From assembly GCF_010500845.1 (NCBI RefSeq), contig NZ_JAAAMI010000004.1, positions 124,001-188,000 on the forward strand: 64,000 bases of DNA, in the 5' to 3' direction. The position numbers and the translations under genes were made by a program. Under the pieces are notes generated by a model. That model saw only the letters and a program-made list of their open reading frames with translations. It did not search any database and was not told the DNA's origin. The stretch comes from Flagellimonas sediminis. GTDB taxonomy: Bacteria > Bacteroidota > Bacteroidia > Flavobacteriales > Flavobacteriaceae. How positions within the stretch are numbered: position 1 is the stretch's first letter; each line of letters opens with the position of its first letter. Positions 7,628 to 26,742 of this stretch are shown here, piece by piece.

Positions 7628-9196
7628 ATGGGGAACAGAATTTACAACATCCTTTTTCATACGCATACCGTGAGTGGTATTGTGATCAGTGTGGCACTTT
7701 ACGTTATTTTCTTTGCGGGTTCCTTTTCCTTTTTCCGGGACGAGATTGCCAATTGGCAACGTGGACACCAAGTTTCCCAAGAAGATGCCATTCCGGGGAG
7801 TGTAGACCAGTATTTGAAAGATCTTTCCGAAAATTACAACCTCCAGGGAAGGGATGTGGAACTCTACCACTATTTCAACGAACGGAGCATTTCGGTAAGC
7901 TTATCGGCTTCCAAAGATTCGTTGGCCACGGAGAAAGACAAGGTCGGGGCTTTTTTCTATATGGATACCGAGGATAAGACCACCTCGGATTATAGGAGTT
8001 CCTATCACTTGGGCGAGTTTTTATATCGCCTTCACTTTTTGGATCAAATCCCCTACCCGTACGGACGCTATTTGGCGGGATTGGTGGCATTCTTCTTTCT
8101 TTTTGCCATCATCACCGGAATTTTGGTACACTGGAACAAAATCGTATCCAACTTTTACACGTTTAGACCATGGGCCAAACTGAAAACGGTTTGGACTGAT
8201 GCCCATACCGCTTTGGGCGTGATCGGGTTTCCGTTTCAATTTGTTTATGCCGTGACCGGTGCCTTCTTTTTATTGAAGGGAATTTTGATTCTACCTATTG
8301 TAATGGGACTGTACAATGGGGACCAGAACAAACTGTATGAAGATCTGGAATACAACCATCCTGTTTATGCCTTTCACAACGAAAAGCTGGAAGAACCCGT
8401 CCAAATAGATCCATTGATTGCCGAAATGAAACACGATTGGCCGGATTTCCGGGTAAAAGAGGTGCATCTTTTCAATTTTGGGGATGTCAATATGCATGCA
8501 TCCATTAGTGGGCACTTGGGATATGGTTCCAAGCTCAATGGTATAGGTCACCGAATCTATAAAATTAAAGACGGATCTGTAGTAGAAGAAAAAGTTCCCA
8601 TGACCAACAATTCTTATCTGGATGGCGTAAAGAACATCATGTTCCGCCTCCATTTTGGAGACTATGCCGGTTATGGCTTGCGGGTGATTTCTTTTATCCT
8701 CGGATTGGTATCCTGCTTTGTAATCTTGTCCGGGGTCATGATCTGGCTAGTAGCCCGTGACAAAAGGAACGTGCCCGAAAAAAGACGCAGGTTCAATCAG
8801 CAAGTGGCCAATGTATACATGGCCGTATGTTTGTCCATGTTCCCCGTTACCGCCTTGGAATTCATTATTGTGAAATGCTCCCAAAATGTGGACATGACCT
8901 TCCTGTACCGTACCTATTTCCCGGTATGGTTGATCACCACACTCTTTTTCATCTTCAAAAACAATATTGGCTTCACCAACCGGTGGACTTTAATATCTGG
9001 CGGTATTTTGGCGCTTTGGATACCTGTGGTTAATGGTATTATGTCAGGCAATTGGCTTTGGGAAGCATACAGGAATGGCCATGAACAAGTAATGTTGGTT
9101 GACTTGCTATGGCTGATCTTAGGGTTGGTAGCATTGTGGATTGCTTTCTTCAAACTAGGGAAATCTAAAAGTAAAATTGCCACTAACGATGTTTAG
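7628..9196 (+). CDS. PepSY-associated transmembrane protein (iron uptake/reduction)
   Basis: A 522-aa inner-membrane protein of the PepSY-TM (PiuB/FecR-like) family; members are linked to siderophore uptake and are proposed to reduce or release iron from the chelate in the periplasm. ATG 7628 is chosen; the in-frame TTG 12 bp upstream overlaps the previous gene. The N-terminal helix contains HTHTVSG with paired His (near residue 13-15), followed by the large periplasmic part, an LVAFFFLFAIITGILVHW helix, the DAHTALGVIGFPFQFVYAVTG helix and several C-terminal helices. Conserved histidines in these helices fit haem or metal ligation. Last gene of the iron operon; its end overlaps the convergent DUF1801 gene by 14 bp. 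Confidence 0.85.
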   Translation: MGNRIYNILFHTHTVSGIVISVALYVIFFAGSFSFFRDEIANWQRGHQVSQEDAIPGSVDQYLKDLSENYNLQGRDVELYHYFNERSISVSLSASKDSLATEKDKVGAFFYMDTEDKTTSDYRSSYHLGEFLYRLHFLDQIPYPYGRYLAGLVAFFFLFAIITGILVHWNKIVSNFYTFRPWAKLKTVWTDAHTALGVIGFPFQFVYAVTGAFFLLKGILILPIVMGLYNGDQNKLYEDLEYNHPVYAFHNEKLEEPVQIDPLIAEMKHDWPDFRVKEVHLFNFGDVNMHASISGHLGYGSKLNGIGHRIYKIKDGSVVEEKVPMTNNSYLDGVKNIMFRLHFGDYAGYGLRVISFILGLVSCFVILSGVMIWLVARDKRNVPEKRRRFNQQVANVYMAVCLSMFPVTALEFIIVKCSQNVDMTFLYRTYFPVWLITTLFFIFKNNIGFTNRWTLISGGILALWIPVVNGIMSGNWLWEAYRNGHEQVMLVDLLWLILGLVALWIAFFKLGKSKSKIATNDV

Positions 9197-9560
9197 TTTT
9201 ATAGAATCCTTTGTGGTTGACCGACTTGGCCTCCAGTAAAAGTTGAACAACAATCCTACCATCTATTTCCTCTTGGTTAAAATAGCGTAATGACTTCATA
9301 ACTTTTCGCCCATCAGTAACCAATTTATCTTGATGGACGGTCAAATGGGCCGAGTTCCAAAGACACATATCAACATAACCCTTTTTTAAGGAAGCGTTGA
9401 AATAACAAAACGGATTGTTGTTTAAATAGTAAAAGGGCAACTTGTACTTATAATCCAACCTGACCTCTGGTATTGTTGTTTCTACCAACACCTGCAATTG
9501 CAATAAGATGCTTCTAAAAGGTTCTACTTGATTCAGGATATAGTTTTCTGCAGGGTTCAT
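9183..9560 (-). CDS. DUF1801 (YdhG-like) protein
   Basis: A 125-aa cytoplasmic protein with the features of the DUF1801/YdhG-like fold: N-terminal helix (AENYILNQVEPFRSILLQL), a KYKLPFYYLNNNPFCYF strand pair and a GYVDMCLWNSAHL segment. Function unknown across the family. Its 3' end overlaps the convergent PepSY gene by 14 bp. Confidence 0.75.
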   Translation of the reverse strand: MNPAENYILNQVEPFRSILLQLQVLVETTIPEVRLDYKYKLPFYYLNNNPFCYFNASLKKGYVDMCLWNSAHLTVHQDKLVTDGRKVMKSLRYFNQEEIDGRIVVQLLLEAKSVNHKGFYKTKHR

Positions 9561-9596
9561 CCTTCAATTTATTTAGATACACAATCTCAAAAAAAA

Positions 9597-9627
9597 TTAG
9601 TTCAAATGAAAATTAATTATAACTTTG
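9597..9627 (+). promoter_or_regulatory. Promoter of membrane protein-regulator pair
   Basis: TAACTTTG at 9620-9627 matches TAnnTTTG exactly, with TTAG (9597-9600) as a 3/4 match to the -33 element 19 nt upstream. The -7 element overlaps the left arm of the palindromic operator at 9622-9638, so a bound regulator would compete with RNA polymerase. Confidence 0.55.
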
Positions 9628-9638
9628 AATTTCAAAGT
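9622..9638. promoter_or_regulatory. Palindromic operator, copy 1
   Basis: ACTTTGAATTTCAAAGT is a perfect 17-bp palindrome (8-bp arms around one base). The identity with the copy before creD extends 7 bp further right (to 9645), and that extension adds a second overlapping palindrome, AAAGTACTTT. It ends 8 bp before the ATG at 9647. Confidence 0.7.
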
Positions 9639-9646
9639 ACTTTAAA

Positions 9647-10255
9647 ATGGATTCAAAAAAATATTTGGATGATATCTCACAGATTAAAGATTTGATGAAC
9701 CGTTCTTCCCGGTTCATATCATTAAGTGGCCTATCAGGAATACTGGCCGGAATATATGCTATCATCGGTTCTCTTGTTGCCTACTTTTTTTTACTTCCTG
9801 GGGTTGATGACTACGTCACCTTACACAATAGGAACTTTAAACTAATTATGGGTATATTAATCCTAGTGGCTGTGCTAAGCTTTGTCACTGCTTATTTGTT
9901 AACCACCAGAAAGGCAAAAAAGAACAATGAAAAAATTTGGGACGACACGACCAAACGATTGCTCGTCAATTTTTTTGTCCCCTTGGTGACCGGGGGTATC
10001 TATATCCTTATCAAGTTGAACAGCCAACACTATGGCCTCACCGCCTCGCTCATGCTCATTTTCTATGGTTTGGCATTGGTGAATGCATCAAAATACACCA
10101 TTGGCACGGTAAAATATCTTGGTTACACCCAAATTGTCCTTGGCCTAATCTGTGCTGCATTTCCTGGCTATGGTTTTTGGTTTTGGGTACTGGGTTTTGG
10201 CATTTTGCACATTGTGTATGGAAGTATCATGTATTTAAAAGAGGATAAGGCATAA
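9647..10255 (+). CDS. Hypothetical integral membrane protein
   Basis: A 202-aa protein with five predicted membrane helices (about 27-50, 66-87, 103-121, 131-147 and 155-197, the last probably two short helices) and a soluble N-terminus (MDSKKYLDDISQIKDLMNRS). No family name is recognised. It is one base upstream of the winged-helix regulator gene and shares an identical operator with creD, so the three form one regulatory unit. A role in sensing or buffering envelope stress is only a guess from the CreD link. Confidence 0.8.
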   Translation: MDSKKYLDDISQIKDLMNRSSRFISLSGLSGILAGIYAIIGSLVAYFFLLPGVDDYVTLHNRNFKLIMGILILVAVLSFVTAYLLTTRKAKKNNEKIWDDTTKRLLVNFFVPLVTGGIYILIKLNSQHYGLTASLMLIFYGLALVNASKYTIGTVKYLGYTQIVLGLICAAFPGYGFWFWVLGFGILHIVYGSIMYLKEDKA

Positions 10256-10256
10256 A

Positions 10257-10553
10257 GTGGGACTTATTGATAACATAAACAAGTTGTTTGACCATCGCAT
10301 ACGATTGGGCATCATGTCCATTCTTATGGTGAACGAAGAGGTGGATTTCAATCGGCTTAAGGAACTTTTGGACGTTACCGATGGAAATTTGGCAAGCCAT
10401 ACCAAAACCCTTGAAAATGCAGAATACATCAAAATAGAAAAATCCTTTATTGGCAAAAAACCCAACACCAAATATATCATCACACGTGTGGGCAGGAAAG
10501 CTTTCAAAAAACATATTGATGCTCTGGAGCATCTTATCAGGAACCCAGAATAA
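10257..10553 (+). CDS. Winged-helix transcriptional regulator (creD-linked)
   Basis: A 98-aa single-domain winged helix-turn-helix protein starting at a GTG codon one base after the previous stop. Helix 1 (DHRIRLGIMSILMVNEE), the VDFNRLKELLDVTDGNLASHTKTLENAEYI helix-turn-helix and the KPNTKYIITRVGRKAFKKH wing match the ArsR/MarR-like family of short regulators that are common in Bacteroidota. The likely targets are the two identical palindromes at 9622 and 10569, giving autoregulation plus control of creD. Binding is inferred from co-location. Confidence 0.85.
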   Translation: MGLIDNINKLFDHRIRLGIMSILMVNEEVDFNRLKELLDVTDGNLASHTKTLENAEYIKIEKSFIGKKPNTKYIITRVGRKAFKKHIDALEHLIRNPE

Positions 10554-10568
10554 TTTTTTTATCCATTC

Positions 10569-10585
10569 ACTTTGAATTTCAAAGT
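10569..10585. promoter_or_regulatory. Palindromic operator, copy 2 (creD)
   Basis: Exact second copy of ACTTTGAATTTCAAAGT; identity with copy 1 continues to 10592. A TCACTTTG (10567-10574), one mismatch from TAnnTTTG, overlaps the left arm as in copy 1. It lies 18 bp before the creD ATG. Confidence 0.7.
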
Positions 10586-10603
10586 ACTTTAATATTTAAT
10601 AAC

Positions 10604-11962
10604 ATGACATCACAAAAACAAAGATTCGGAAACTGGCTGAAACATTCCATATCAGCAAAAATGATCACAGTAGGCTTTTTGATACTCATTCTATTGATAC
10701 CATTAGGTTTTGTTAGCGATTTGATACGGGAACGTGGATTTAGACAAGCAGAAGTAATCCAAGAAATCAATTCAAAATGGGGAGGGCAGGTCATCATCAA
10801 TGGCCCAATCCTTAAAATACCTTACCAGCAATATGTAGAGGAGAAAATCTTCAACGAGTCAACAAAAACCTACATGATAAATCAAAAAGCTGTTCGGCAG
10901 CATGCCTATTTCTTTCCAAATAATTTGGAAATAGGTTCCGACGTTTCCACTAAACCATTGGAGCGTGGCATATATGAATCTGTGGTTTTTAGTGCGGCTT
11001 CAACCATTAATGGAAAGTTCGCCTCACCCAGTTTCACTGAAATTGAATTGAAAGATGGGGATATTCTTTGGGATAAGGCCACTGTTTTATTCAAGGTGAG
11101 TAATTTAAAAGGCATCCGGAACACAGTAAACATCAAATTGGGAGATACAGAATATACGCTCAATCCTAAGTTTGACAACTCCTACATGAACACCCTGGAG
11201 TCCGGCTTTGTCAAAAATCTTGATGAACTACAAGAAAAACCTATGGGCTTCGAATCCGAAATCACCATCAATGGTAGTACTAGTTTACAGTTTGTTCCCA
11301 TAGGGAAAGAGACCCTAGTTTCCATGAACTCCAACTGGCACTCGCCTAGTTTTAACGGAAATTTTCTTCCCGAGACAGAGGGCAAGGAAATATCGGACAA
11401 AGGCTTCACTGCCAAATGGAAGGTTTTGGAAACTAACCGGCGCTTTGGCCAATCCTTTTTTGATCAATTGCCTGATCTAAACGAATTTTCATTCGGCACG
11501 GAATTCTTAATCCCAGTGGATGATTATCAAAAAACCGAACGCACCAGCAAATATGGACTTATGATTATTGGTCTTACCTTGTTGGTGTTCCTTTTGATAC
11601 AGATCAGCAGCAAAATACATATTCATCCATTTCAATATCTGATGATCGGTTTGGCATTGGTCATGTTCTACACGCTACTGATCTCCATATCAGAACATAA
11701 AAACTACCTCTTTGCCTATTTGATATCGGGGGCTTCGGTGGTAACATTGATAACCGTATACTCCAGAACAATTTTGAAGAGCAATAAATTTACACTGTTA
11801 ATATTGGGGTCCATGCTGGGATTGTACACCTTTATCTTGGTCATTATCCAGATAGAGGACTACGCCCTTCTGGTGGGAAGTATTGGGCTCTTTGTAATCT
11901 TGTCCATCATCATGTTCACCTCCCGTAAAATAGATTGGGCAGGGGCCAGTATTTCAGATTAG
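10604..11962 (+). CDS. creD: Inner membrane protein CreD
   Basis: A 452-aa CreD-family inner-membrane protein. In enterobacteria the family is induced by the CreBC system and linked to envelope integrity and colicin/beta-lactam phenotypes; here regulation seems to be by the adjacent winged-helix protein instead. One N-terminal helix (about 20-42), the signature GGQVIINGPILKIPYQQY (about 65-82), a large periplasmic domain with FGTEFLIPVDDYQKTERTSKYG (about 297-318), then five to six C-terminal helices. Length is normal. It is followed by a good terminator. Confidence 0.92.
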   Translation: MTSQKQRFGNWLKHSISAKMITVGFLILILLIPLGFVSDLIRERGFRQAEVIQEINSKWGGQVIINGPILKIPYQQYVEEKIFNESTKTYMINQKAVRQHAYFFPNNLEIGSDVSTKPLERGIYESVVFSAASTINGKFASPSFTEIELKDGDILWDKATVLFKVSNLKGIRNTVNIKLGDTEYTLNPKFDNSYMNTLESGFVKNLDELQEKPMGFESEITINGSTSLQFVPIGKETLVSMNSNWHSPSFNGNFLPETEGKEISDKGFTAKWKVLETNRRFGQSFFDQLPDLNEFSFGTEFLIPVDDYQKTERTSKYGLMIIGLTLLVFLLIQISSKIHIHPFQYLMIGLALVMFYTLLISISEHKNYLFAYLISGASVVTLITVYSRTILKSNKFTLLILGSMLGLYTFILVIIQIEDYALLVGSIGLFVILSIIMFTSRKIDWAGASISD

Positions 11963-17056: not shown

Positions 17057-17815
17057 CTAGAATTGAATAACTTCTTTAAGTTTTTCAAATTCTCCGTTGC
17101 TCATTGATGAGCCATCCAAAGAATTCTTTCTAAATCTATATAAAAAGGCACCTCTCTTTGAACCCGACATGTCTTTCGTGTCCGTTTTCTCCAATATGTT
17201 CAAGGAAAGAATTTTTTTTCTAAAATTTCTCGGGTCAAATTTAGTATCATAGATACTTTCATAAAGAATCTGTAGTTGGGGCAATGTGAAAAGTTGTGGA
17301 AGCAATTCAAATCCCAAGGGTCTGTTCCGCGCCATCAGCCTTAAGCTTCTGATGGCATCCTGGACCATTCTACCATGGTCTAGCAATAGGTCCGGTACAT
17401 CTTTCAAATCAAACCATCTGGCATCATGGTCCTCCACAGCCTTTAGATCAAATTCGTTTATCCTGATCAAACTGTAATAGGCCACGGAAATAACCCGTTC
17501 AACAGGATCGCGGTTCACGGCACCGTAGGTCTTCAATTGCTTTAGATATACATCCCTAAGACCTGTTAGCCGATAAAGTATTTCACTGGCCCCTTGATCC
17601 AAGGACACATCATTTTTAATCAATGCACCAATAAGGGACCATGAACCTTTAAAAGGCTCCACTTTCCTTCGGAATAGAAGCAATTTTAGTTTTTCCGAAT
17701 CGAACCCAAAAATAATACAATCAACTGCAACGGTAATTCTTTGTTGTGGGTCGTATTTACTGCGTAGCACACTACTCTGTTTTAGCGGTGGATTAATGAC
17801 CATAGCACCATCCAT
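17057..17815 (-). CDS. Nudix-family transcriptional regulator (NrtR/AraR-like)
   Basis: A 252-aa protein with an N-terminal Nudix-like domain (about 25-150; VAVDCIIFGF, GSWSLIGALIKNDVSLDQGA) and a C-terminal winged helix (about 165-235; GFELLPQLFTLPQLQILYESIY, RNFRKKIL). The Nudix box lacks the glutamates needed for hydrolysis, as in regulators of the NrtR/AraR type that bind a sugar or nucleotide ligand. It is clearly similar to the AraR candidate at 47.5 kb (same VDCIIFGF, GFELLP, LYESI segments). No sugar genes adjoin it, so its effector and targets are unknown. Preceded on its strand by the secretion genes 265 bp upstream. Confidence 0.85.
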   Translation of the reverse strand: MDGAMVINPPLKQSSVLRSKYDPQQRITVAVDCIIFGFDSEKLKLLLFRRKVEPFKGSWSLIGALIKNDVSLDQGASEILYRLTGLRDVYLKQLKTYGAVNRDPVERVISVAYYSLIRINEFDLKAVEDHDARWFDLKDVPDLLLDHGRMVQDAIRSLRLMARNRPLGFELLPQLFTLPQLQILYESIYDTKFDPRNFRKKILSLNILEKTDTKDMSGSKRGAFLYRFRKNSLDGSSMSNGEFEKLKEVIQF

Positions 17816-17852
17816 TACTGGAAGGCTGCACTCAATATAGTCAAATTCATCA

Positions 17853-17860
17853 CAAAATTA
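17853..17860 (-). promoter_or_regulatory. -7 element of Nudix regulator gene
   Basis: Minus strand TAATTTTG matches TAnnTTTG, 38 nt upstream of the start at 17815. It suggests transcription separate from the hlyD-like gene. Nothing else was identified in 17816-18080. Confidence 0.4.
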
Positions 17861-18080
17861 AGTTGAAAAATAAGAGAAAGCCTTCTGCCTTGATCCTTTA
17901 TGCTCTTTTTCCAAATTGGACCTGTAAAAGTTGCTCTTTTAATGATCGAAAATAAAAATAATGCAATTTCCCTTTTGAGCATCCCAAGTTTGTTCCATCG
18001 ATTTGTATAACCCCAGAACCAAATCAACGATGCCTCGGTAAGCATTTTAATTTCTTATGGGACCGAACCTTCATGGATGC

Positions 18081-19379
18081 TCAATAGCTAAATAAATTCT
18101 TCACCTTGTAGAACAATCTTTCAGCTAAGCTTAGGTCCTCAGTTATGATTTCTGCAGTACCGAGCATTTCTTGCTTAAAATCGATTTTCTGGTTATAAGA
18201 TGTCTTCATACCATCCTTTAACGAAATATACACAACATAGTTTCCTTGGGTATCCGGTGAAATGGAAATATTTTCCACAATGCCGATCAGCATTCCGAAC
18301 TGCTGGTAGGGAAAATTATCCAACTTGATCAGTACCTTTTGGCCTACGTTGATCTTTCCTGCATTTTGGGAAGCGATGGTAAGCCTACCCACAAAGTCCG
18401 ATTTTTTTTTCGGAAGGATGGTAAAAACAACATCACCTTCCGTCACCTGTTGGTTTGTTCCCCAGAATTCATTGAAACTTACGACACCATCAATTGAAGC
18501 GGACAAAACGTATTGGTACCTCCAATCATTGATGGCCTTTTTTAGAGCGTTGAACGAATGCAACAGATTCTTCCTGGTCCGGGCATGTTCCAGCTCTTTA
18601 TTGATGTAGGTTGCCCTTAAATCTTGGTTCGCCGATGAGAGGGCCTCCCTCATTTGTGAGATCGAAATTACCGTACTGTTCATGCTTTTTTTGGCTTGAA
18701 GAAAATCGAGGCCTTTGGATTCGAACTCTTGTTGGGAGATCACCCCTTTTTGGAACAATACTTTGTATCGGTCATATTCTATCTGTTTTAGGTTGAGTTC
18801 TTCCTCTAAAATCTTTTTTTGTTCCATTTGTTCAGAAAGTTGGCTTCTTACTTCCTCTAAGGATATTTTGTTGCCACTCAATCGGTTTTCATATGGAAAT
18901 AGTTCTTTTAATAAAGTGAATTCCAAGTAACTTTTCTCAAACTCTAAATAGGAGGATTCTATATCACCCAAGGTCAATGCGGAAGTAGTCTCCATCGGAA
19001 ATTGAAATCCGTTTTCCACCAAATTGATGGTATCCACAATTTGCATCAAAAGGGACAGATCCCCATAGTTGGAAATGTTTTTAATGATAGCTAATTCCTC
19101 ACCCTTGGTTACGGAATCTCCATTCTTCACAAAAAAGCTCTCAATCTGACCAGAAGAACGGGCCACTACTTTTTCAGTAGGGTTTTTGGTCGTGATCAAC
19201 ACTTTAGCGGACACAAAATCCGGATAGTTGATAATGAACGACAATGCAATAAGAATACACACAAAGGCAAAGACCAAGGTAATGCCCCACCTTACGATCC
19301 AAGATGGGGGTGTACCAAGAATCTCCTGAACTTCCTCAGACCTTAGATTCAACTTTATTACATCCTTCTTCCCCTCCAT
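18081..19379 (-). CDS. HlyD-family membrane fusion protein of peptide exporter
   Basis: A 432-aa periplasmic adaptor for the adjacent ABC exporter. ATG 19379 is chosen, 2 bp after the exporter stop; a TTG two codons further upstream overlaps it. One membrane helix (about 31-52, ITLVFAFVCILIALSFI), a lipoyl-like half-motif (SGQIESFFVKNGDSVTKGEELAII, about 90-113), a long coiled-coil region (about 130-280, rich in EQMEQKKILEEEL) and a beta-barrel domain with GKINVGQKVLIKLDNFPYQQFG. Family size and layout are those of bacteriocin/microcin exporters. Last gene of the peptide operon. Confidence 0.9.
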   Translation of the reverse strand: MEGKKDVIKLNLRSEEVQEILGTPPSWIVRWGITLVFAFVCILIALSFIINYPDFVSAKVLITTKNPTEKVVARSSGQIESFFVKNGDSVTKGEELAIIKNISNYGDLSLLMQIVDTINLVENGFQFPMETTSALTLGDIESSYLEFEKSYLEFTLLKELFPYENRLSGNKISLEEVRSQLSEQMEQKKILEEELNLKQIEYDRYKVLFQKGVISQQEFESKGLDFLQAKKSMNSTVISISQMREALSSANQDLRATYINKELEHARTRKNLLHSFNALKKAINDWRYQYVLSASIDGVVSFNEFWGTNQQVTEGDVVFTILPKKKSDFVGRLTIASQNAGKINVGQKVLIKLDNFPYQQFGMLIGIVENISISPDTQGNYVVYISLKDGMKTSYNQKIDFKQEMLGTAEIITEDLSLAERLFYKVKNLFSY

Positions 19380-19381
19380 GG

Positions 19382-21616
19382 TCAATTGGTCAGTTTTAGC
19401 TTTTCAAGGGCAAGTTGGTTCCTTACCAGATTAAAATATGCACCGCCTTTGGTAATTAGGGATTCATGGTTGCCAATTTCCTTTATCATCCCCTTTTCAA
19501 GTACCACGATCTGATCGGCATTCTGTACCGTGCTCAAACGGTGGGCAATGATCAAGACGGTCCTGTTTTTAAAAAAAACATCAAGGTTTTCCATGATCTC
19601 GGATTCATTGGAGGCATCCAATGCGGAAGTCGCCTCGTCAAAGAATAGAAAATGGGGGTCTTTATATAGGGCTCGGGCAATGAATATGCGCTGCTTTTGA
19701 CCCGTACTGATACCTATACCCTCATTCCCGATTTTGGTGTTGAACCCCAATGGCAATGATTGTACAAACTCATAGATATTGGCCAATTTTACGGACTGGA
19801 GCAGTTTTTCCTCATCGATTACATCTACCCCTACAGCGATGTTACCGGCTATGGTATCGTTAAAAATATAGCCTTCTTGCATGACCACTCCGCAACTTGC
19901 CCTCCAAGCGGTATGTGATATATCGCGCAGGTTATGGTCCCCAAACAAAATCTTACCCTCGTTTGGCTCATAAAACTTAAGGATGAGTTTCATGAGAGTG
20001 GTTTTGCCGCTTCCGCTCATGCCCACTATGGCTGTTTTTTTTCCAGCAGGAATTGTCAGTGATAATTTATTCATCACATTGACATCGTTCCCCAAATACC
20101 TAAATGAGATATTATCGATGTTGATATCATTATCAGGACCGATCCTGGATATGTAGGTCCTGTTCTCGTTTTCTTCATTTTCCTTGTCATGAATCTCTCC
20201 CAATCGTTCCAAACTTATCTTTGCATCCTGTGCTGTTCTAATGAAATTGACCAACTGTAAAATAGGTGAATTCAACTGACCTATTATATATTGGATGGAG
20301 AGCATCATACCCAAAGTAATGTTCCCGTTGATCACCATGATGGCCGAGGTGAACGTAATGGCAATATTCTTCAACTCATTTATAAAGGAGGATCCAATTT
20401 CCTGCGTCTGCTCCAAGGCCAGGTTTTGCATGTTCACCTTAAAGAGTCGGGCCTGGACAAATTCCCAGCCCCATCGTTTCTTTTTTTCGGCATTGTTCAT
20501 TTTTATTTCCTGCATACCGTTGATCAACTCAATGACCGTGCTCTGTTCTTGGCTCAACTGGGAAAAACGTTTGTGGTCCAGTTCCTTTCTGCGTTTCAGA
20601 AAGAACAATATCCAAACCACATAAAGGGCACTTCCCACTATGAATATGCTGAAAATGGATATGTCATAATAGATAAGCACCAAACCAAAGACAAAAAGGT
20701 TGGCCAAGGAAAAAAGAGTATTAAGGGTGTCACTTGTAAGAAGACGTTCTATACGGCTATGATCGTTGATCCGTTGCATGATATCGCCGGTCATCCTGGT
20801 ATCAAAATAAGAGATGGGCAGGGCCATCAATTTGATAAAAAAATCGGATATCAGGGAAATATTGATCCGTGTACTAAGATGGAGCAAGATCCAACTCCTA
20901 AAAAACTCCACACTTATCCTACCCAAAAAAAGTAAAATCTGTCCAAATAAAACTGCATAGATGAAACTGATATCCTGGTTCTGTATCCCAATATCCACAA
21001 TACTTTGGGTAAGAAAAGGAAAAATCAGTTGCAACAAGCTGCCAACCAAAAGCCCTACACAAAGTTGAACTACCAGTGTTCTATATTTGAAAAGATATTG
21101 ATAGAGGAAGAGCAAGGACTTCTTATCCGTCCTTTCCCATTTTTGTGATCTAAATTTTGGGGTGACCTCAAGTAAAAGTGCAATACCCTCGTTCGTGGCC
21201 TCATTGGCATTGTTCCCGATCCAACGGGTCAAGAACTCTTCTTTTTGAAAAGAAATCAGTCCAAATGCCGGATCGGAGATATAGATCACATCATCCTTGA
21301 TCTTATAGATGACCACAAAATGGCTTTTGTCCCAATGGGCAATAAGGGGAAGTGGGGCATTTTTGAGTTTTTGATAGTTGGTCTTTAGAGCTAAGGACTT
21401 AAATCCGATTTTTTCAGCTGCATCGCTCAATTTTAATAGGTTACTACCTTCCCTCGTGGTTTCTGTAAGCTCTCTGATCTGCTTCAACGAAATGAGCTTA
21501 CCATAATATTTGGCAACTATTTTTAGGCATGTAGGGCCGCAATCCTTTAGATCGGGCTGCTTGTAGAAGGGAAAGTTTTTTTTCAAAGGGTAAAAGCTAA
21601 TTTGACATTTACTCAA
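19382..21616 (-). CDS. Peptidase-containing ABC transporter (C39 peptidase, PCAT)
   Basis: A 744-aa exporter that cleaves double-glycine leaders and pumps out the mature peptide. Residues 1-130 form an N-terminal C39 peptidase with the catalytic set intact: Gln20, Cys26 (KDCGPTC), His99 (SHFVVIY) and Asp115 (SDPAFG). Residues about 160-440 are a six-helix ABC membrane domain. The C-terminal ATPase has Walker A GMSGSGKTT, signature STGQKQR and Walker B FLFFDEATSALD, and the H-loop IIAHRLST. No ATG fits the frame: the start is TTG 21616 (or TTG 21583), an oddity. A hairpin terminator precedes it. Substrates are surely the three peptides encoded just upstream. Confidence 0.95.
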   Translation of the reverse strand: MSKCQISFYPLKKNFPFYKQPDLKDCGPTCLKIVAKYYGKLISLKQIRELTETTREGSNLLKLSDAAEKIGFKSLALKTNYQKLKNAPLPLIAHWDKSHFVVIYKIKDDVIYISDPAFGLISFQKEEFLTRWIGNNANEATNEGIALLLEVTPKFRSQKWERTDKKSLLFLYQYLFKYRTLVVQLCVGLLVGSLLQLIFPFLTQSIVDIGIQNQDISFIYAVLFGQILLFLGRISVEFFRSWILLHLSTRINISLISDFFIKLMALPISYFDTRMTGDIMQRINDHSRIERLLTSDTLNTLFSLANLFVFGLVLIYYDISIFSIFIVGSALYVVWILFFLKRRKELDHKRFSQLSQEQSTVIELINGMQEIKMNNAEKKKRWGWEFVQARLFKVNMQNLALEQTQEIGSSFINELKNIAITFTSAIMVINGNITLGMMLSIQYIIGQLNSPILQLVNFIRTAQDAKISLERLGEIHDKENEENENRTYISRIGPDNDINIDNISFRYLGNDVNVMNKLSLTIPAGKKTAIVGMSGSGKTTLMKLILKFYEPNEGKILFGDHNLRDISHTAWRASCGVVMQEGYIFNDTIAGNIAVGVDVIDEEKLLQSVKLANIYEFVQSLPLGFNTKIGNEGIGISTGQKQRIFIARALYKDPHFLFFDEATSALDASNESEIMENLDVFFKNRTVLIIAHRLSTVQNADQIVVLEKGMIKEIGNHESLITKGGAYFNLVRNQLALEKLKLTN

Positions 21617-21630
21617 TATGCCGTAAAAAC

Positions 21631-21662
21631 AATTGGGAATACCCCATGAAGTATTCCCAATT
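21631..21662 (-). terminator. Hairpin terminator between peptide genes and exporter gene
   Basis: AATTGGGAATAC (21631-21642) and GTATTCCCAATT (21651-21662) form a perfect 12-bp stem with an 8-nt loop; on the minus strand it is followed by GTTTTTACGG. It sits in the 66-bp gap after the third peptide gene. Partial termination would give many peptide transcripts per exporter transcript. Confidence 0.75.
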
Positions 21663-21682
21663 TCATTTTCGATTACCCTGCT

Positions 21683-21862
21683 TTAATAGCAGTAATCTAT
21701 CCCGGAGTGCCAAACACCTGAACAATACGCAGCTGCTTGTGAACACGTTGGGAAATTGTAGACGACTTGTGCATATTGGTGGTCACACCTCAAGGTCGCG
21801 CCACCCAATATCTTCTTTTGTTCATTTTTGGACAGCTCTTGTCCGAGATCCAACTTTTTCAT
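21683..21862 (-). CDS. Double-glycine leader peptide precursor C (four Cys)
   Basis: A 59-aa precursor not reported by long-frame searches. Leader of 21 residues ending LGQELSKNEQKKILGG, then a 38-residue core with Cys at core positions 5, 19, 26 and 37. The leader is nearly identical to those of the next two genes while the cores differ, as in tandem bacteriocin-like families. The core keeps the C-x6-C spacing and the YC-xG motif. Expected to be cleaved after GG by the C39 peptidase and to form two disulfides. It ends 20 bp before the terminator hairpin. Confidence 0.85.
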   Translation of the reverse strand: MKKLDLGQELSKNEQKKILGGATLRCDHQYAQVVYNFPTCSQAAAYCSGVWHSGIDYCY

Positions 21863-21898
21863 GATTTAGAATATTTAGGTTCAACTTTTAGTTGTGGA

Positions 21899-22099
21899 TT
21901 ACCAACAAGACACCATGGATCCTTGATAATAAACTCCGGCACAATATGCAGGTCCGTTAGAACAGTTCACGACGGGGTTGCCCACCGTTACGTATTGATA
22001 TTCCGGGGGGTTGTGAGGAGCGTAGCAGATCACCCCTCCACCTAGAATTTTCTTTTGTTCGTTTTTGGACAATTCCTGCCCAAGACTCAATCTTTTCAT
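21899..22099 (-). CDS. Double-glycine leader peptide precursor B (four Cys)
   Basis: A 66-aa precursor: 21-residue leader (MKRLS, then LGQELSKNEQKKILGG) and a 45-residue core with Cys at 4, 25, 32 and 44. Core motifs shared with precursor A are NCSxGPAYCxG and a V-x-S-C end. The core is rich in Tyr, Gly, Asn and Pro, near neutral in charge, and lacks the YGNGV box of pediocin-like bacteriocins. Secreted after cleavage; activity unknown. Confidence 0.9.
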   Translation of the reverse strand: MKRLSLGQELSKNEQKKILGGGVICYAPHNPPEYQYVTVGNPVVNCSNGPAYCAGVYYQGSMVSCW

Positions 22100-22120
22100 T
22101 TTTATGGCCTTAAAGATTGA

Positions 22121-22309
22121 TCAAGAACAGGATGTAACATATCCATTATGGGCCCCTTGGCAATAAGCCGGTCCATAAGAGCAGTTAGAGAAATTGTACA
22201 CGGTAACATAATCATGCAGGTTGTTGCTCCAACATGTCAAGGTTGCTCCCCCAAGGATCTTCTTTTGTTCGTTCTTGGACAGTTCCTGTCCTAAATTCAA
22301 TTTGTTCAT
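22121..22309 (-). CDS. Double-glycine leader peptide precursor A (four Cys)
   Basis: A 62-aa precursor, first of the tandem three: leader MNKLN + LGQELSKNEQKKILGG and a 41-residue core with Cys at 5, 22, 29 and 40. It shares ATLxC with precursor C and NCSxGPAYCxG with precursor B, so the three cores form one family. The first gene follows a 146-bp AT-rich gap from the glycosyltransferase gene. No clear TAnnTTTG was found there. Confidence 0.9.
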   Translation of the reverse strand: MNKLNLGQELSKNEQKKILGGATLTCWSNNLHDYVTVYNFSNCSYGPAYCQGAHNGYVTSCS

Positions 22310-22455
22310 AGTTTTCAGAAATAAATGATTAGTAAATATTTAACACCCTTAAATTATAAAAATTTAAATAAAATCCTACATTTTTAGTAATATAATTTTT
22401 ACAATAAAATATATTTACCAATATCACAATTCCATTTGTGGACAAATCCCTTGAA

Positions 22456-24063
22456 TTATTTGACTTCTACTAGGTTTTCAAAGGCCATTCGCTTTATGGT
22501 ATCAAAAAGAAGTTTTTGGTATTGTACATTGTCAATGGTAAGGTCGTCTTCAAAATATTTGGTCAGTTCAGATGCCAACGCTCGGATATTACCTTTACCT
22601 ATGTGGCTGAGAAGGGCTGCGTCCAGGCCATCATGTCTTGTTTCAACAATATCAAGATTCATAATGTTAGGATGTAGTGTAATCACATATCTTACGCCAG
22701 TATCATCCAAATTTTCCATAAGCATACTTCCATCGTTATTTTCTGAGAGCACATTAACATCCCATGAGCTTTCAAAAACTTCAACTCCCTCTGCAAGCTC
22801 AATCCCATGTTCCATCCAATTTTCACTAAAAAAGAACCTTGATGCCAAAGCATAACGATGCATATCTTGCAAATACAAGTGTTCCTTAATACCCACATGG
22901 TCTTCGTTCAGTTTGGACAACATAATATATTTGTTTCTTTCCAATCCATAGACCTCTTCCAGTAATCCGGTAAATTTGTCCTGTTTTCTTGCATTGATAT
23001 GATTACTCAACTCCCAAAAATTGGCCAGGTAAACATCATCTATCCGATGTAACAGATGAATGGTTCTTGCAAAAGTCCTTTTAACGCCAGTACCATTTAT
23101 ATACTCTGCAACATTTAGGTCGGTCTTTTTTTTACCATTTATCATATGCAAAGGACCATTGTGGAAGTAAGCATACAGCCTATTTTCCACGTCAATGTGT
23201 TGACATTGATATAGTATGTTGTAGTATACGGAGGGGTACTCTAACCGGAGTCGTTTTGAAAGATGGTTAAGTACAAAAGCCTCTTTTTTGCAACCTCCTA
23301 CGGGATGGATAAGTTTTACATGGGGGATGTCCGAAAATCTCCAATAATCCTCATACAATGGATTTATGACCGGTTCTTCGAACAAATAGGACACTGAAAC
23401 CTCCTCTTTCTTTGATAGATAGTACAACGAAACCTGTTCTATCAACCAATTCAATTTGCCAACGTCCACAAGCTCCAATTTGTCTGGATTTTTCGAAATG
23501 AGTGCATTGGCTTCTTCACAATATCTTTTGATGAAATCCAGGTCACCACCACCTAAGATTCCTGCATTACACGCATAAATATGGTCATCCTTGTGTTTCT
23601 CCTTTAAATGGTCTGGGATTTTGAATCCTTTTTCATGTACGGTTTCCAGAATCTCCTTATTGAAGAAAAGGTCCATTTCCAGATTTGATGCGATAAGTCC
23701 AGCCTCAGAAAATGATTTTGGAAAGGGTTGCCATAGGTATATATCTCCATCAACATGTAAGAACGGTTCATCCTGAACGGAATAAGTCTTGATCTTTGCC
23801 AAAGAAAACAGCTCGGGCCTGCATTGAAAGGATTCATCAAATATGAGGTGTACTTTGGTATAGGGAAGTTTTAACACGTCAATTAATATGTGTTTGCCCA
23901 ACTCATCGGTATAAAGCTCCACACGTTCATATTGTCTTCGCAACGTTAAACAGCTGAGAGCCCATGACATCCAATGGTATTCCGCAGACCTCCACCCCGC
24001 CTTGATATCCAGGTTGGTCACACCATCGTTTAGTCCCGTCCAAAAGGTCTGCGTAATTTTCAT
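22456..24063 (-). CDS. DUF6734-like glycosyltransferase with extra C-terminal domain
   Basis: A 535-aa cytoplasmic protein. The N-terminal ~330 residues resemble DUF6734 and the GT-A glycosyltransferase pattern: FLHVDGDIYLW with a DGD metal motif at 105-107, and YACNAGILGGGDLDFI (163-178), like the NAG..GG acceptor-loop segment of such enzymes. Residues about 330-430 are helical, and about 445-533 form a compact C-terminal region (DGSMLMENLDD, then a helix-rich end GNIRALASELTKYF) that may be a PqqD/RRE-like leader-binding domain. It heads the peptide operon, so the peptides are the natural candidate acceptors. Glycosylation is inference; donor sugar unknown. Confidence 0.7.
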   Translation of the reverse strand: MKITQTFWTGLNDGVTNLDIKAGWRSAEYHWMSWALSCLTLRRQYERVELYTDELGKHILIDVLKLPYTKVHLIFDESFQCRPELFSLAKIKTYSVQDEPFLHVDGDIYLWQPFPKSFSEAGLIASNLEMDLFFNKEILETVHEKGFKIPDHLKEKHKDDHIYACNAGILGGGDLDFIKRYCEEANALISKNPDKLELVDVGKLNWLIEQVSLYYLSKKEEVSVSYLFEEPVINPLYEDYWRFSDIPHVKLIHPVGGCKKEAFVLNHLSKRLRLEYPSVYYNILYQCQHIDVENRLYAYFHNGPLHMINGKKKTDLNVAEYINGTGVKRTFARTIHLLHRIDDVYLANFWELSNHINARKQDKFTGLLEEVYGLERNKYIMLSKLNEDHVGIKEHLYLQDMHRYALASRFFFSENWMEHGIELAEGVEVFESSWDVNVLSENNDGSMLMENLDDTGVRYVITLHPNIMNLDIVETRHDGLDAALLSHIGKGNIRALASELTKYFEDDLTIDNVQYQKLLFDTIKRMAFENLVEVK

Positions 24064-24138
24064 AAATACAATATATTAAGTTTTTTCTTACTTTAAACAT
24101 GGAAAATAAGTATATATTTAATCGATATTATATTCTCA

Positions 24139-25782
24139 ATGGACTTTTTTGAAGATGCATACAAGTTCCTAAGGGTATCAGGTTACCAAGTGAGCAAGAG
24201 TTACCTAAAGGAATGGATGCAGGCCCATCCCCACTACCCTGCCTTGATAAGTTTTACAGATTTACTGGATGAGTTCCAAATCAGCCACAAGGTCATCAGG
24301 ATTGAGAAGGACTCGCCCCAAGAACTGTTTCCCAACAGGTTGTTTATCCATTTTGCTTTTGATTCGGGTGAAGCAGGTTTTCGTATTGTCCACAGAAATT
24401 CAAAAGGGGAATTTGACACAAAAGACCTGGCAGGCTGGACCGGGATCACATTACTTTTGGACGAAAGTTCAAAACTGGAACATCCAGAGCATCTCAAAGT
24501 TTATTCAGGCGAACGGGTTGAAAAAATGATGGTGGTATCATTGGTATCCGTTCTTATCCTTCTTTTTTCCGTCAATCTGATTTATAGCGCCCTATGGATC
24601 ATGCCCATAAGTTTTATGCTGTTTGCCGTGGGATTCTTCTTTTCTATCCTAATAGTTTCCAAGGAAATAGGGTTAAAAAGCAATGTTTCCGAGTTTTTTT
24701 GCAAAACGGATGATACGGGTTGCAGCACCGTCTTACACTCCAAATACGGAAAATTGGGTCGGTATTTAAGTTTGGGTGATCTTGCCCTCATCTATTTCGG
24801 CGGATCCCTTTTATATGTAGCTATGTTCACAGAAACACCACCGTTGGAGAAGGTGACTTTCTTGTCCATCCTTCAAATACCAGGTCTCTTGTTCACTCCT
24901 TTTTCCATTTATTATCAAACAAAGCTTAAATCTTTTTGTCCCCTTTGTTCGGCTTTACTTTTTGTACTTTGGCTACAGGCCATTACTTTATTTGGTTATG
25001 TCCTTGATCAGTATCCTTCCCAGATAGGGTCACTTTTTACCCTCAAAGCCATCACCAACTTTCTTATACCTTATGCCCTGGCCGTATCGTGGATAATCCT
25101 AAAACCAAAGTTGATACAAAACCTAAGCATACCTCATCAGAATACCATGCTACGGAAATGGAGGCAAAACCCTATCTGGTTCGATGCACTTCTGCCTCTG
25201 CACAAAAAAGTGGACACTTCACCTTGGGGCATGGAAATAGCGTATGGAAATCCTGAAGGGGTATTGCAGTTTCTTATTGTAAGCAATCCCTTTTGTGACC
25301 ACTGTGCCATTGCGCACAAAAATCTGGAAAAAATCTTGGATAGGCATCCTACCGATATTGGGGTTCGAATAAGATTTTATTTGAAAACATCCGACGTTGA
25401 AACTAAAAGTGAAAAATTCCTTGCAGTCTGCCAAATGCTACATATCTACATAGAAAGGATTTGGTCCATTGACCAGAGCTTGGACAAAAGGAAGATGATG
25501 TCCCGAAAAATTATCGGAGACTGGTATGAAATGGGCAAAAATAGATGGGAGAATGAATATGGTCCTGTAGCTTCCTTTGACAAACTTAACGAGTCCACAA
25601 TGAAAATCATTCAAAATTCTGTCCAGTGGTGCAATGAGGTAGGGATAGACCAAACTCCTTCCTTTTTTGTGAACGGCCATGAAATGCCCAATCCCCATAC
25701 CTTCAAAGATGTATTCCTATTTGCAACGGATTATATCGATATTTTGAAGCGCAAAATGGAGAAAAACCCTGTGGCCGTATAG
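24139..25782 (+). CDS. VKOR-DsbA fusion with degenerate C39-like N-terminus
   Basis: A 547-aa membrane protein that should make disulfides in the periplasm. Residues 1-115 look like the C39-peptidase fold (HPHYPALISFTDLLDEF) but lack the catalytic Cys. Then come helices (about 129-175) and a vitamin K epoxide reductase domain with loop cysteines 188 and 195 and the CxxC pair 267/270 (FCPLC), followed by a thioredoxin/DsbA-like domain with CDHC at 386-389 and a cis-Pro loop QTPSFFVNG. VKOR passes electrons from the DsbA part to quinone. Divergent from the peptide operon by 75 bp; the four-Cys peptides are the likely clients. Confidence 0.88.
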   Translation: MDFFEDAYKFLRVSGYQVSKSYLKEWMQAHPHYPALISFTDLLDEFQISHKVIRIEKDSPQELFPNRLFIHFAFDSGEAGFRIVHRNSKGEFDTKDLAGWTGITLLLDESSKLEHPEHLKVYSGERVEKMMVVSLVSVLILLFSVNLIYSALWIMPISFMLFAVGFFFSILIVSKEIGLKSNVSEFFCKTDDTGCSTVLHSKYGKLGRYLSLGDLALIYFGGSLLYVAMFTETPPLEKVTFLSILQIPGLLFTPFSIYYQTKLKSFCPLCSALLFVLWLQAITLFGYVLDQYPSQIGSLFTLKAITNFLIPYALAVSWIILKPKLIQNLSIPHQNTMLRKWRQNPIWFDALLPLHKKVDTSPWGMEIAYGNPEGVLQFLIVSNPFCDHCAIAHKNLEKILDRHPTDIGVRIRFYLKTSDVETKSEKFLAVCQMLHIYIERIWSIDQSLDKRKMMSRKIIGDWYEMGKNRWENEYGPVASFDKLNESTMKIIQNSVQWCNEVGIDQTPSFFVNGHEMPNPHTFKDVFLFATDYIDILKRKMEKNPVAV

Positions 25783-25818
25783 GACCCGATCCTGATGGTT
25801 TTTACCAGCACCCAAATT

Positions 25819-26583
25819 TTAAAGCTTCCTTATTTTAATATCCCTGAACCAGGTTTCAAAATACCAATATTGAAGGGCAATTTTGCCTTGGGTAGCCTTA
25901 CCGAATTCAGGATAATTGACAAAATGGGTGGCAGCGATCATTTTCTTCCATTCCGGATCGTTAAAATCCTGTTCCCCTGTCAATACCCCGTTCAGATAGA
26001 ACTCCACTTTGCCATCCACTTGTTTGATCCGGGTGGAATTCCATTCCCCTGACTTCATTTCCACTGCGTTTTCCTGAGGTGCAAAAACATACAGGCAACC
26101 TGGCCGTTTCGCAGGAAGCTTATAATCCATGTGTTCAGAGTCCAGAATTTGGTATTCAGGACCAGTTTGCCATGCCGTGGGAATATCCGGCTTTTCCTGT
26201 ACGTTCAAAAAGATACCGCTATTGCCGCGAGAAGCGATTTTCCACTCCAAGGTAAGTTCATAATTTTCATAGGCGTTGTCTGTCAACAGATCCCCTGCCA
26301 TCAACGATTCATCATTGGCGTCGCTATGGATTTCACCATTTACTACTTCCCAAACCGAATCGGCGTCAGGATTGTTGTACAAATGCCATCCATTCAAGGT
26401 TTTTCCATCAAAAAGCAATTCCCATCCTTGTTCTTTTTCCACTTCCAACAATTGGTTGTGTGTTTCATTGGCCAAGGCCATTTTTTTGGTCCTCCATGCT
26501 TGGGGCTCTTCTTTTTTATTTTCTTGTTTGCAGGACATCATGGACAATAAAGAGAAGAACAATAATGAGAATTTGGTACGCAT
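25819..26583 (-). CDS. DUF1080 (3-keto-disaccharide hydrolase-like) lipoprotein
   Basis: A 254-aa lipoprotein: ATG 26583 begins the signal MRTKFSLLFFSLLSMMSC with Cys as lipobox. The mature part is one concanavalin-like DUF1080 domain with the usual WELLFDGKTLNGWH opening, ENYELTLEWKI, NSGIFLNV and RPGCLYVF segments and FRDIKIRKL ending. Members act on 3-keto-sugars or bind carbohydrate. Isolated gene, convergent with the VKOR fusion gene. Substrate unknown. Confidence 0.88.
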   Translation of the reverse strand: MRTKFSLLFFSLLSMMSCKQENKKEEPQAWRTKKMALANETHNQLLEVEKEQGWELLFDGKTLNGWHLYNNPDADSVWEVVNGEIHSDANDESLMAGDLLTDNAYENYELTLEWKIASRGNSGIFLNVQEKPDIPTAWQTGPEYQILDSEHMDYKLPAKRPGCLYVFAPQENAVEMKSGEWNSTRIKQVDGKVEFYLNGVLTGEQDFNDPEWKKMIAATHFVNYPEFGKATQGKIALQYWYFETWFRDIKIRKL

Positions 26584-26742
26584 CACTTTTGTTTGTTTTG
26601 TTTGTGCAGCGTTTAAATTTAGAAAAAGAAGTTGAGTCATTGCCAATTGAAGATGGAAATGTCACAAATTGGATAAGATGACTTTCATCAATTGCGATGA
26701 TTTCTAGTTTTCATAACTTGTATACTCTTAAATTTTGAAGCC

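What the first reader, a model, noticed from the sequence alone, without database searches (positions are those of the whole stretch)
18081..25782. Four-cysteine double-glycine peptide system with C39 exporter, VKOR-DsbA and a DUF6734-like glycosyltransferase
Three tandem precursors (59, 66, 62 aa) share the leader LGQELSKNEQKKILGG, but the cores differ. Every core has four Cys with constant C2-x6-C3 spacing and 10-11 residues between C3 and C4. Seen: an active C39 ABC exporter and HlyD adaptor downstream, a VKOR-DsbA fusion divergent, a GT-like enzyme upstream. Known: glycocins use a similar kit (GG leader peptide, GT, PCAT, thiol oxidoreductase), but in Gram-positives. Inference: this is a Gram-negative, disulfide-bonded and possibly glycosylated peptide family for competition or signalling. 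The cores do not contain the pediocin YGNGV box.
Basis: partly seen in the sequence, partly recalled or inferred. Interest (0 to 1): 0.88.

Follow-up and report, generated by a model that had tools for sequence, protein, structure and literature searches.

The report
Sugar-adding peptide toxin kit, Bacteroidota
A genome of the bacterial family Flavobacteriaceae carries a gene set, shared with related bacteria, that is predicted to make small secreted peptides held together by two disulfide bonds and to decorate them with a sugar, using an enzyme that likely grips the peptide's leader with its own extra domain; the products would likely be weapons against competing bacteria, but nothing has been tested in the laboratory.

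The parts
24139..25782 (+). VKOR-DsbA fusion (547 aa), divergent; residues ~1-120 are a degenerate C39-like domain
   Evidence: Pfam VKOR and Thioredoxin_4; hhalign of the N-terminal region of 33 VKORs with that of 36 C39 exporters: probability 98.9, E 2.4e-17, the catalytic-Cys segment not aligned; VKOR-part CxxC 33 of 33, DsbA-part CxxC 32 of 33
22456..24063 (-). DUF6734 protein (535 aa): predicted peptide glycosyltransferase
   Evidence: PF20508 1.4e-94; AlphaFold model pLDDT 88.6
23209..24063 (-). GT-A fold domain, residues 1-285; invariant D105, D107, H253, K259, near-invariant G256
   Evidence: Foldseek and VIA-align; conservation in 67 sequences
22459..22851 (-). C-terminal domain, residues 405-535: winged helix like a RiPP recognition element
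22121..22309 (-). precursor 1 (62 aa; 21 aa leader, 41 aa core, 4 Cys)
21899..22099 (-). precursor 2 (66 aa; 45 aa core, 4 Cys)
21683..21862 (-). precursor 3 (59 aa; 38 aa core, 4 Cys)
21631..21662 (-). terminator-like hairpin between last precursor and exporter gene
   Evidence: 14 pairs, then GTTTTT; the scan's total of 9 sites does not exceed its shuffles, 7.5 +- 2.9; fold z -3.99; a hairpin lies at the same place in 5 of 5 homologous loci folded, not always with a T run
19382..21616 (-). C39 peptidase-containing ABC exporter (744 aa)
   Evidence: PF03412, PF00664, PF00005
18081..19385 (-). HlyD-type periplasmic adaptor (434 aa)
   Evidence: PF13437

Best explanation
This is a conserved gene cluster that is predicted to make glycosylated, disulfide-bonded RiPP peptides, likely bacteriocins, with a DUF6734 enzyme whose N-terminal half is predicted to be a GT-A glycosyltransferase and whose C-terminal domain would bind the precursor leader. 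Shown by sequence: the genes, the shared leaders, the conserved cores, the order in relatives, and that the two halves of the enzyme occur both fused and apart. Inferred: (1) the C-terminal domain of DUF6734 binds the GG leader in the cytoplasm; (2) the GT-A half moves a sugar, probably with retention, onto a core residue (the tyrosine directly before Cys3 is the best candidate because it is nearly invariant); (3) the C39 exporter with HlyD and an outer-membrane channel cleaves after GG and secretes the core; (4) the VKOR-DsbA fusion makes two disulfides in the periplasm, its C39-like domain possibly docking on leader peptides; (5) a hairpin before the exporter gene keeps peptide output above exporter output; (6) the products act on related bacteria.
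Confidence: 0.62

Rival explanations
1. A bacteroidetocin-like (class IIf) bacteriocin set: disulfide-bonded but unglycosylated peptides, with DUF6734 doing something else, such as modifying a surface receptor for self-protection.
For: Bacteroidetocins have four Cys, a GG leader, a thiol oxidoreductase, a C39-type exporter, no YGNGVXC and no immunity gene (PMC6671954 passages). A VKOR relative and C39 exporter without DUF6734 also occur in this genome (L041).
Against: DUF6734 pairs with a precursor alone in 7 Mucilaginibacter loci; its C-terminal domain is shared with LanC-like RiPP enzymes; no gene for the 5-TM protein, whose deletion attenuates bacteroidetocin activity, lies among the parts.
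Confidence: 0.2
2. The peptides are signals (pheromones), not toxins.
For: GG-leader peptides exported by C39 transporters include signals (PMC6363468 abstract start); no immunity gene is seen.
Against: No receptor kinase or response regulator gene lies between the parts; four-Cys cores resemble bacteriocins more; core sequences differ within one locus.
Confidence: 0.15
3. DUF6734 makes a sugar-bearing intermediate that is attached to the peptide, as in class IIb microcins, rather than glycosylating the peptide directly.
For: GG leader, C39 exporter, HlyD and a glycosyltransferase also occur together there (recalled, no call).
Against: None of the nine proteins scanned around the cluster belongs to a siderophore family (the rest of the window was not annotated), and the enzyme is GT-A, whereas the microcin enzyme is GT-B (recalled).
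Confidence: 0.04

Closest known systems
Bacteroidetocins (class IIf bacteriocins; Coyne 2019, PMC6671954; passages seen)
   Same: Bacteroidota; GG leader; four Cys; no YGNGVXC; thiol oxidoreductase; C39-type ABC exporter; no immunity gene seen
   Different: Leader 21 aa here versus 15-16; no 5-TM protein gene among the parts; HlyD adaptor and DUF6734 added; 'glycos' occurs 0 times in that paper's main text. Their peptide sequences could not be compared (figures are not held)
Glycocins (PMC6405829, PMC12457901; passages seen)
   Same: GG-type leader, glycosyltransferase, C39 exporter, thiol oxidoreductases, disulfide-bonded core
   Different: Their enzyme is SunS-like (PMC6405829); here it is PF20508 with a recognition-element-like C-terminal domain. 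The nested two-disulfide pattern is not shown here
RRE-glycosyltransferase fusions reported with RRE-Finder (PMC7470986, PMC12710340; passages seen)
   Same: Recognition element fused to a glycosyltransferase
   Different: The 2025 paper names PF00535; DUF6734 is not named in the passages seen, and a full-text search for DUF6734 found 0 papers
Bacteroidales RiPP clusters with glycosyltransferases (PMC10352776; passages seen)
   Same: Bacteroidota RiPP clusters with GG leaders, C39 exporters and, in some, glycosyltransferases or a GlyS domain
   Different: Radical-SAM and LanC clusters; DUF6734 is not named in the passages seen; whether BGC3 or BGC9 hold a DUF6734 protein was not checked
Class IIb microcins (recalled)
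   Same: Gram-negative, GG leader, C39 exporter, HlyD, a glycosyltransferase
   Different: Siderophore conjugates; different enzyme fold

Membership tests
Bacteroidetocins | at least two, in A and B four, core Cys | tested here: met
   four in 3 of 3 precursors
Bacteroidetocins | leader of 15-16 aa ending in GG | tested here: not met
   GG is present but the leader is 21 aa
Bacteroidetocins | 5-TM protein gene in the cluster | tested here: not met
   the genes of 17057-26646 are assigned otherwise by Pfam; no membrane-helix predictor was run
Bacteroidetocins | C39 ABC exporter and thiol oxidoreductase | tested here: met
Bacteroidetocins | kills Bacteroidales; target BamA | not testable with these tools
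   needs peptide; target from the PMC8546649 title, listing only
Glycocins | SunS-like peptide glycosyltransferase | tested here: not met
   PF20508 is the only family over its cut-off
Glycocins | sugar on Cys, Ser or Thr of the core | not testable with these tools
   needs mass spectrometry
Glycocins | two nested disulfides | tested here: inconclusive
   four Cys present; connectivity unknown
GT-A glycosyltransferase with GT8-like motifs | GT-A fold | tested here: met
GT-A glycosyltransferase with GT8-like motifs | DxD and HxxGxxK | tested here: met
   D105, D107, H253, K259 invariant, G256 at least 90% of 67; the PW that ends HxxGxxKPW is absent in the window protein
RiPP recognition element | beta strands then three helices (winged helix, bbb-aaa) | tested here: met
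RiPP recognition element | binds the leader | not testable with these tools
   needs a binding assay
RiPP recognition element | detected by known sequence families | tested here: not met
   only one weak match, NF033536 at E 0.11 in 1 of 34 sequences

The most novel reading that the evidence does not exclude
DUF6734 founds a new class of RiPP glycosyltransferases: retaining GT-A enzymes with a swappable leader-binding half, shared with lanthionine cyclases, that glycosylate the nearly invariant core tyrosine next to a disulfide cysteine, giving tyrosine-O-glycosylated, disulfide-bonded bacteriocins across Bacteroidota.
Probability: 0.3. Interest if true: 0.9.

Novelty: new variant of a known kind. 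Interest (0 to 1): 0.76.

Why it matters
It gives an unstudied protein family (0 papers) a concrete, testable role, and offers a genome-mining handle for glycosylated peptides in Gram-negative bacteria. A leader-binding half fused to, or split from, a glycosyltransferase would be a ready-made tool for adding sugars to chosen peptides. It would also extend the known peptide arsenal of Bacteroidota.

Tried and rejected
Pfam and NCBIfam scans of 34 C-terminal sequences found no significant recognition-element family; the idea was kept on structure and domain swapping. Those 34 (alignment A2) were picked by eye from the loci translated; sequences without the domain, such as L066 and L067, were left out. 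Alignment A1 took the window protein and 66 of the 120 listed homologs, those nearly full length (203 passed the threshold; only the 7994 candidates sharing most words were scored). Sequence search of the A1 profile against solved structures gave 4 matches, all E 0.32 or worse. The search with the LanC-like protein's C-terminal region found only itself. The single-precursor search in 395 genomes gave five other genomes, all E 0.003 or worse. Bacteroidota-type promoter motifs (recalled) were not found before the precursors in the window, L046 and L049; the other loci's stretches were overwritten in that script and not scanned. Sigma-70-like sites did not exceed shuffles. The second own-genome C39/VKOR locus (L041) gave one GG-peptide candidate by eye. 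Pediocin-type peptides rejected: no YGNGV. Glycocin membership rejected on the enzyme. The broken second precursor copy of L046 and the truncated third one of L052 were left out of A3. Papers were seen as search listings, abstract starts or passages; none was read whole.

Full report
The window lies in a 4.22 Mb genome. On the minus strand, three small genes code for precursors with an identical leader stretch and four core cysteines; upstream of them is a DUF6734 gene, downstream a C39 exporter and an HlyD adaptor, and divergent to the whole is a VKOR-DsbA fusion.

The gene set is a family, not a single event. One scan of the species-genome collection with the DUF6734 alignment kept the best 80 of 187 encoding stretches, 79 distinct named loci. 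In six of the 79 (Croceivirga, Allomuricauda, Maribacter, two Flagellimonas and an uncultured Flavobacteriaceae) all five parts stand in the same order; in the Maribacter locus two extra genes stand before the exporter. Over the 79 loci, 32 show a C39 exporter and 31 a VKOR relative within the DNA held; many loci are cut by contig ends, so these are lower bounds (counted). Identity to the window among the six is 75-90% for the exporter but 41-53% for DUF6734 and 38-56% for VKOR (best segments). With the own genome counted, 16 of 395 genomes of the phylum sample carry DUF6734, 12 of 296 of the order sample and 13 of 71 of the genus: a patchy, accessory distribution.

The peptides have a shared, non-pediocin core. 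In 23 aligned precursors the GG, the Tyr-Cys pair at Cys3 and the last Cys are invariant. A profile search found 107 relatives: 107 of 107 have GG, 88 have four core Cys, in 87 of these 88 a Tyr directly precedes Cys3, and Cys3-Cys4 spacing is 10 in 75 of 88. Two relatives hold two complete cores in one chain. A broken precursor copy stands in L046.

Domain swapping gives independent support. A profile of DUF6734 residues 330-535 also finds LanC-like proteins in L099 (Saprospiraceae, E 1.1e-11) and L117 (Chryseobacterium, E 1.9e-7), each in a locus with GT-only DUF6734 genes; a shorter C-terminal model found L099 but not L117, and hit 0 of 1956 reversed or shuffled proteins. I then predicted that GT-only DUF6734 genes in the window's genus would have this half on a neighbouring LanC-like enzyme, or else lack GG precursors. 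The outcome is partly as predicted: in 8 of 9 a separate gene of 207-235 aa, not a LanC-like enzyme, lies next to the glycosyltransferase gene and matches the C-terminal half by group profile comparison (hhalign 96.9% for L137, L139, L140; 93.9% for L141-L144, L148; controls at most 2.0%). A plain HMM search at E 0.01 had found only L137 and L139. L138 has a LanC-like neighbour without a detectable domain (5.2%), and the neighbour in L035, outside the genus, also failed (7.2%).

Pairing is closest in Mucilaginibacter: in 7 of the 9 loci of that genus (L056-L062) DUF6734 is followed within 44-77 nt by one precursor, with no exporter or VKOR match in the DNA held, which is short (under 15 kb) for three of them; the other two, L073 and L105, have exporters and other arrangements. 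Four of the seven genomes, and those of L048 and L053, all carry C39 exporters elsewhere (6 of 6). Across the 79 loci, GG/Cys-rich ORFs are about eight times denser near DUF6734 than beyond 6 kb (49 against 5). Still, 40 of 79 loci gave none, including all 17 labelled Bacteroidaceae, Prevotellaceae, Bacteroides, Prevotella or Leyella, and the association with the C-terminal domain is modest (31 of 56 with it, 14 of 44 without).

The VKOR-DsbA protein begins with a degenerate C39-like domain (98.9%, E 2.4e-17). Pfam also finds a C39 domain at the C-terminus of one DUF6734 relative, P0111. Leader-binding domains may thus be attached to several enzymes of this pathway; that is inference. A hairpin lies between the last precursor and the exporter gene in the window (followed by a T run) and in 5 of 5 homologous loci folded (z -3.5 to -7.8 in stretches chosen around the hairpins; L049 was not folded), though the terminator scan as a whole did not exceed its shuffles. 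This is consistent with more peptide than exporter being made.

Comparison with the known. Bacteroidetocins share most of the kit (PMC6671954 passages) but have shorter leaders and a 5-TM protein. Glycocins share the logic with another enzyme (PMC6405829, PMC12457901 passages). Glycocin clusters in Gram-negative bacteria have been stated before (PMC7616364 passage), RRE-glycosyltransferase fusions too (PMC7470986 passage), and some Bacteroidales RiPP clusters hold glycosyltransferases (PMC10352776 passages; not compared with DUF6734). A search for DUF6734 in 5.39 million papers found none, and six further searches (with 90 on glycocins beyond Firmicutes) listed no paper recognisable from title, abstract start or the passages opened as describing this system; subscription papers are mostly not covered. 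I therefore call it a new variant of a known kind.

Noticed in passing
L037-L040, L044, L045 (about 8800-11300): A divergent GT-only branch of DUF6734 (275-295 aa, in four of the six loci two copies) sits in a conserved cassette with ~900, ~1150 and ~1300 aa proteins and no GG peptides by the filter; not identified.
   Followed up: no
L046 12021-12197: A second precursor copy is broken (internal stop, second Gly of GG and some Cys lost).
   Followed up: partly
P0111: A DUF6734 relative carries a C39 peptidase-like domain at its C-terminus.
   Followed up: partly
L089, L093, L094, L101, L104, L108, L111: DUF6734 with very short GG peptides bearing only two Cys (C-x10-C), a different core type.
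   Followed up: no
L041 and L043 (own genome contigs C3 and C16): Further C39 exporter and VKOR relatives in the same genome, which has only one DUF6734.
   Followed up: partly
17057-17815: NrtR/AraR-type Nudix regulator gene just beyond the HlyD gene; link to the cluster unknown.
   Followed up: no
L137, L139, L140: GT-only DUF6734 with its split partner near a GG peptide and proteins resembling lantibiotic dehydratase pieces (by eye): possible glycosylated lanthipeptides.
   Followed up: partly
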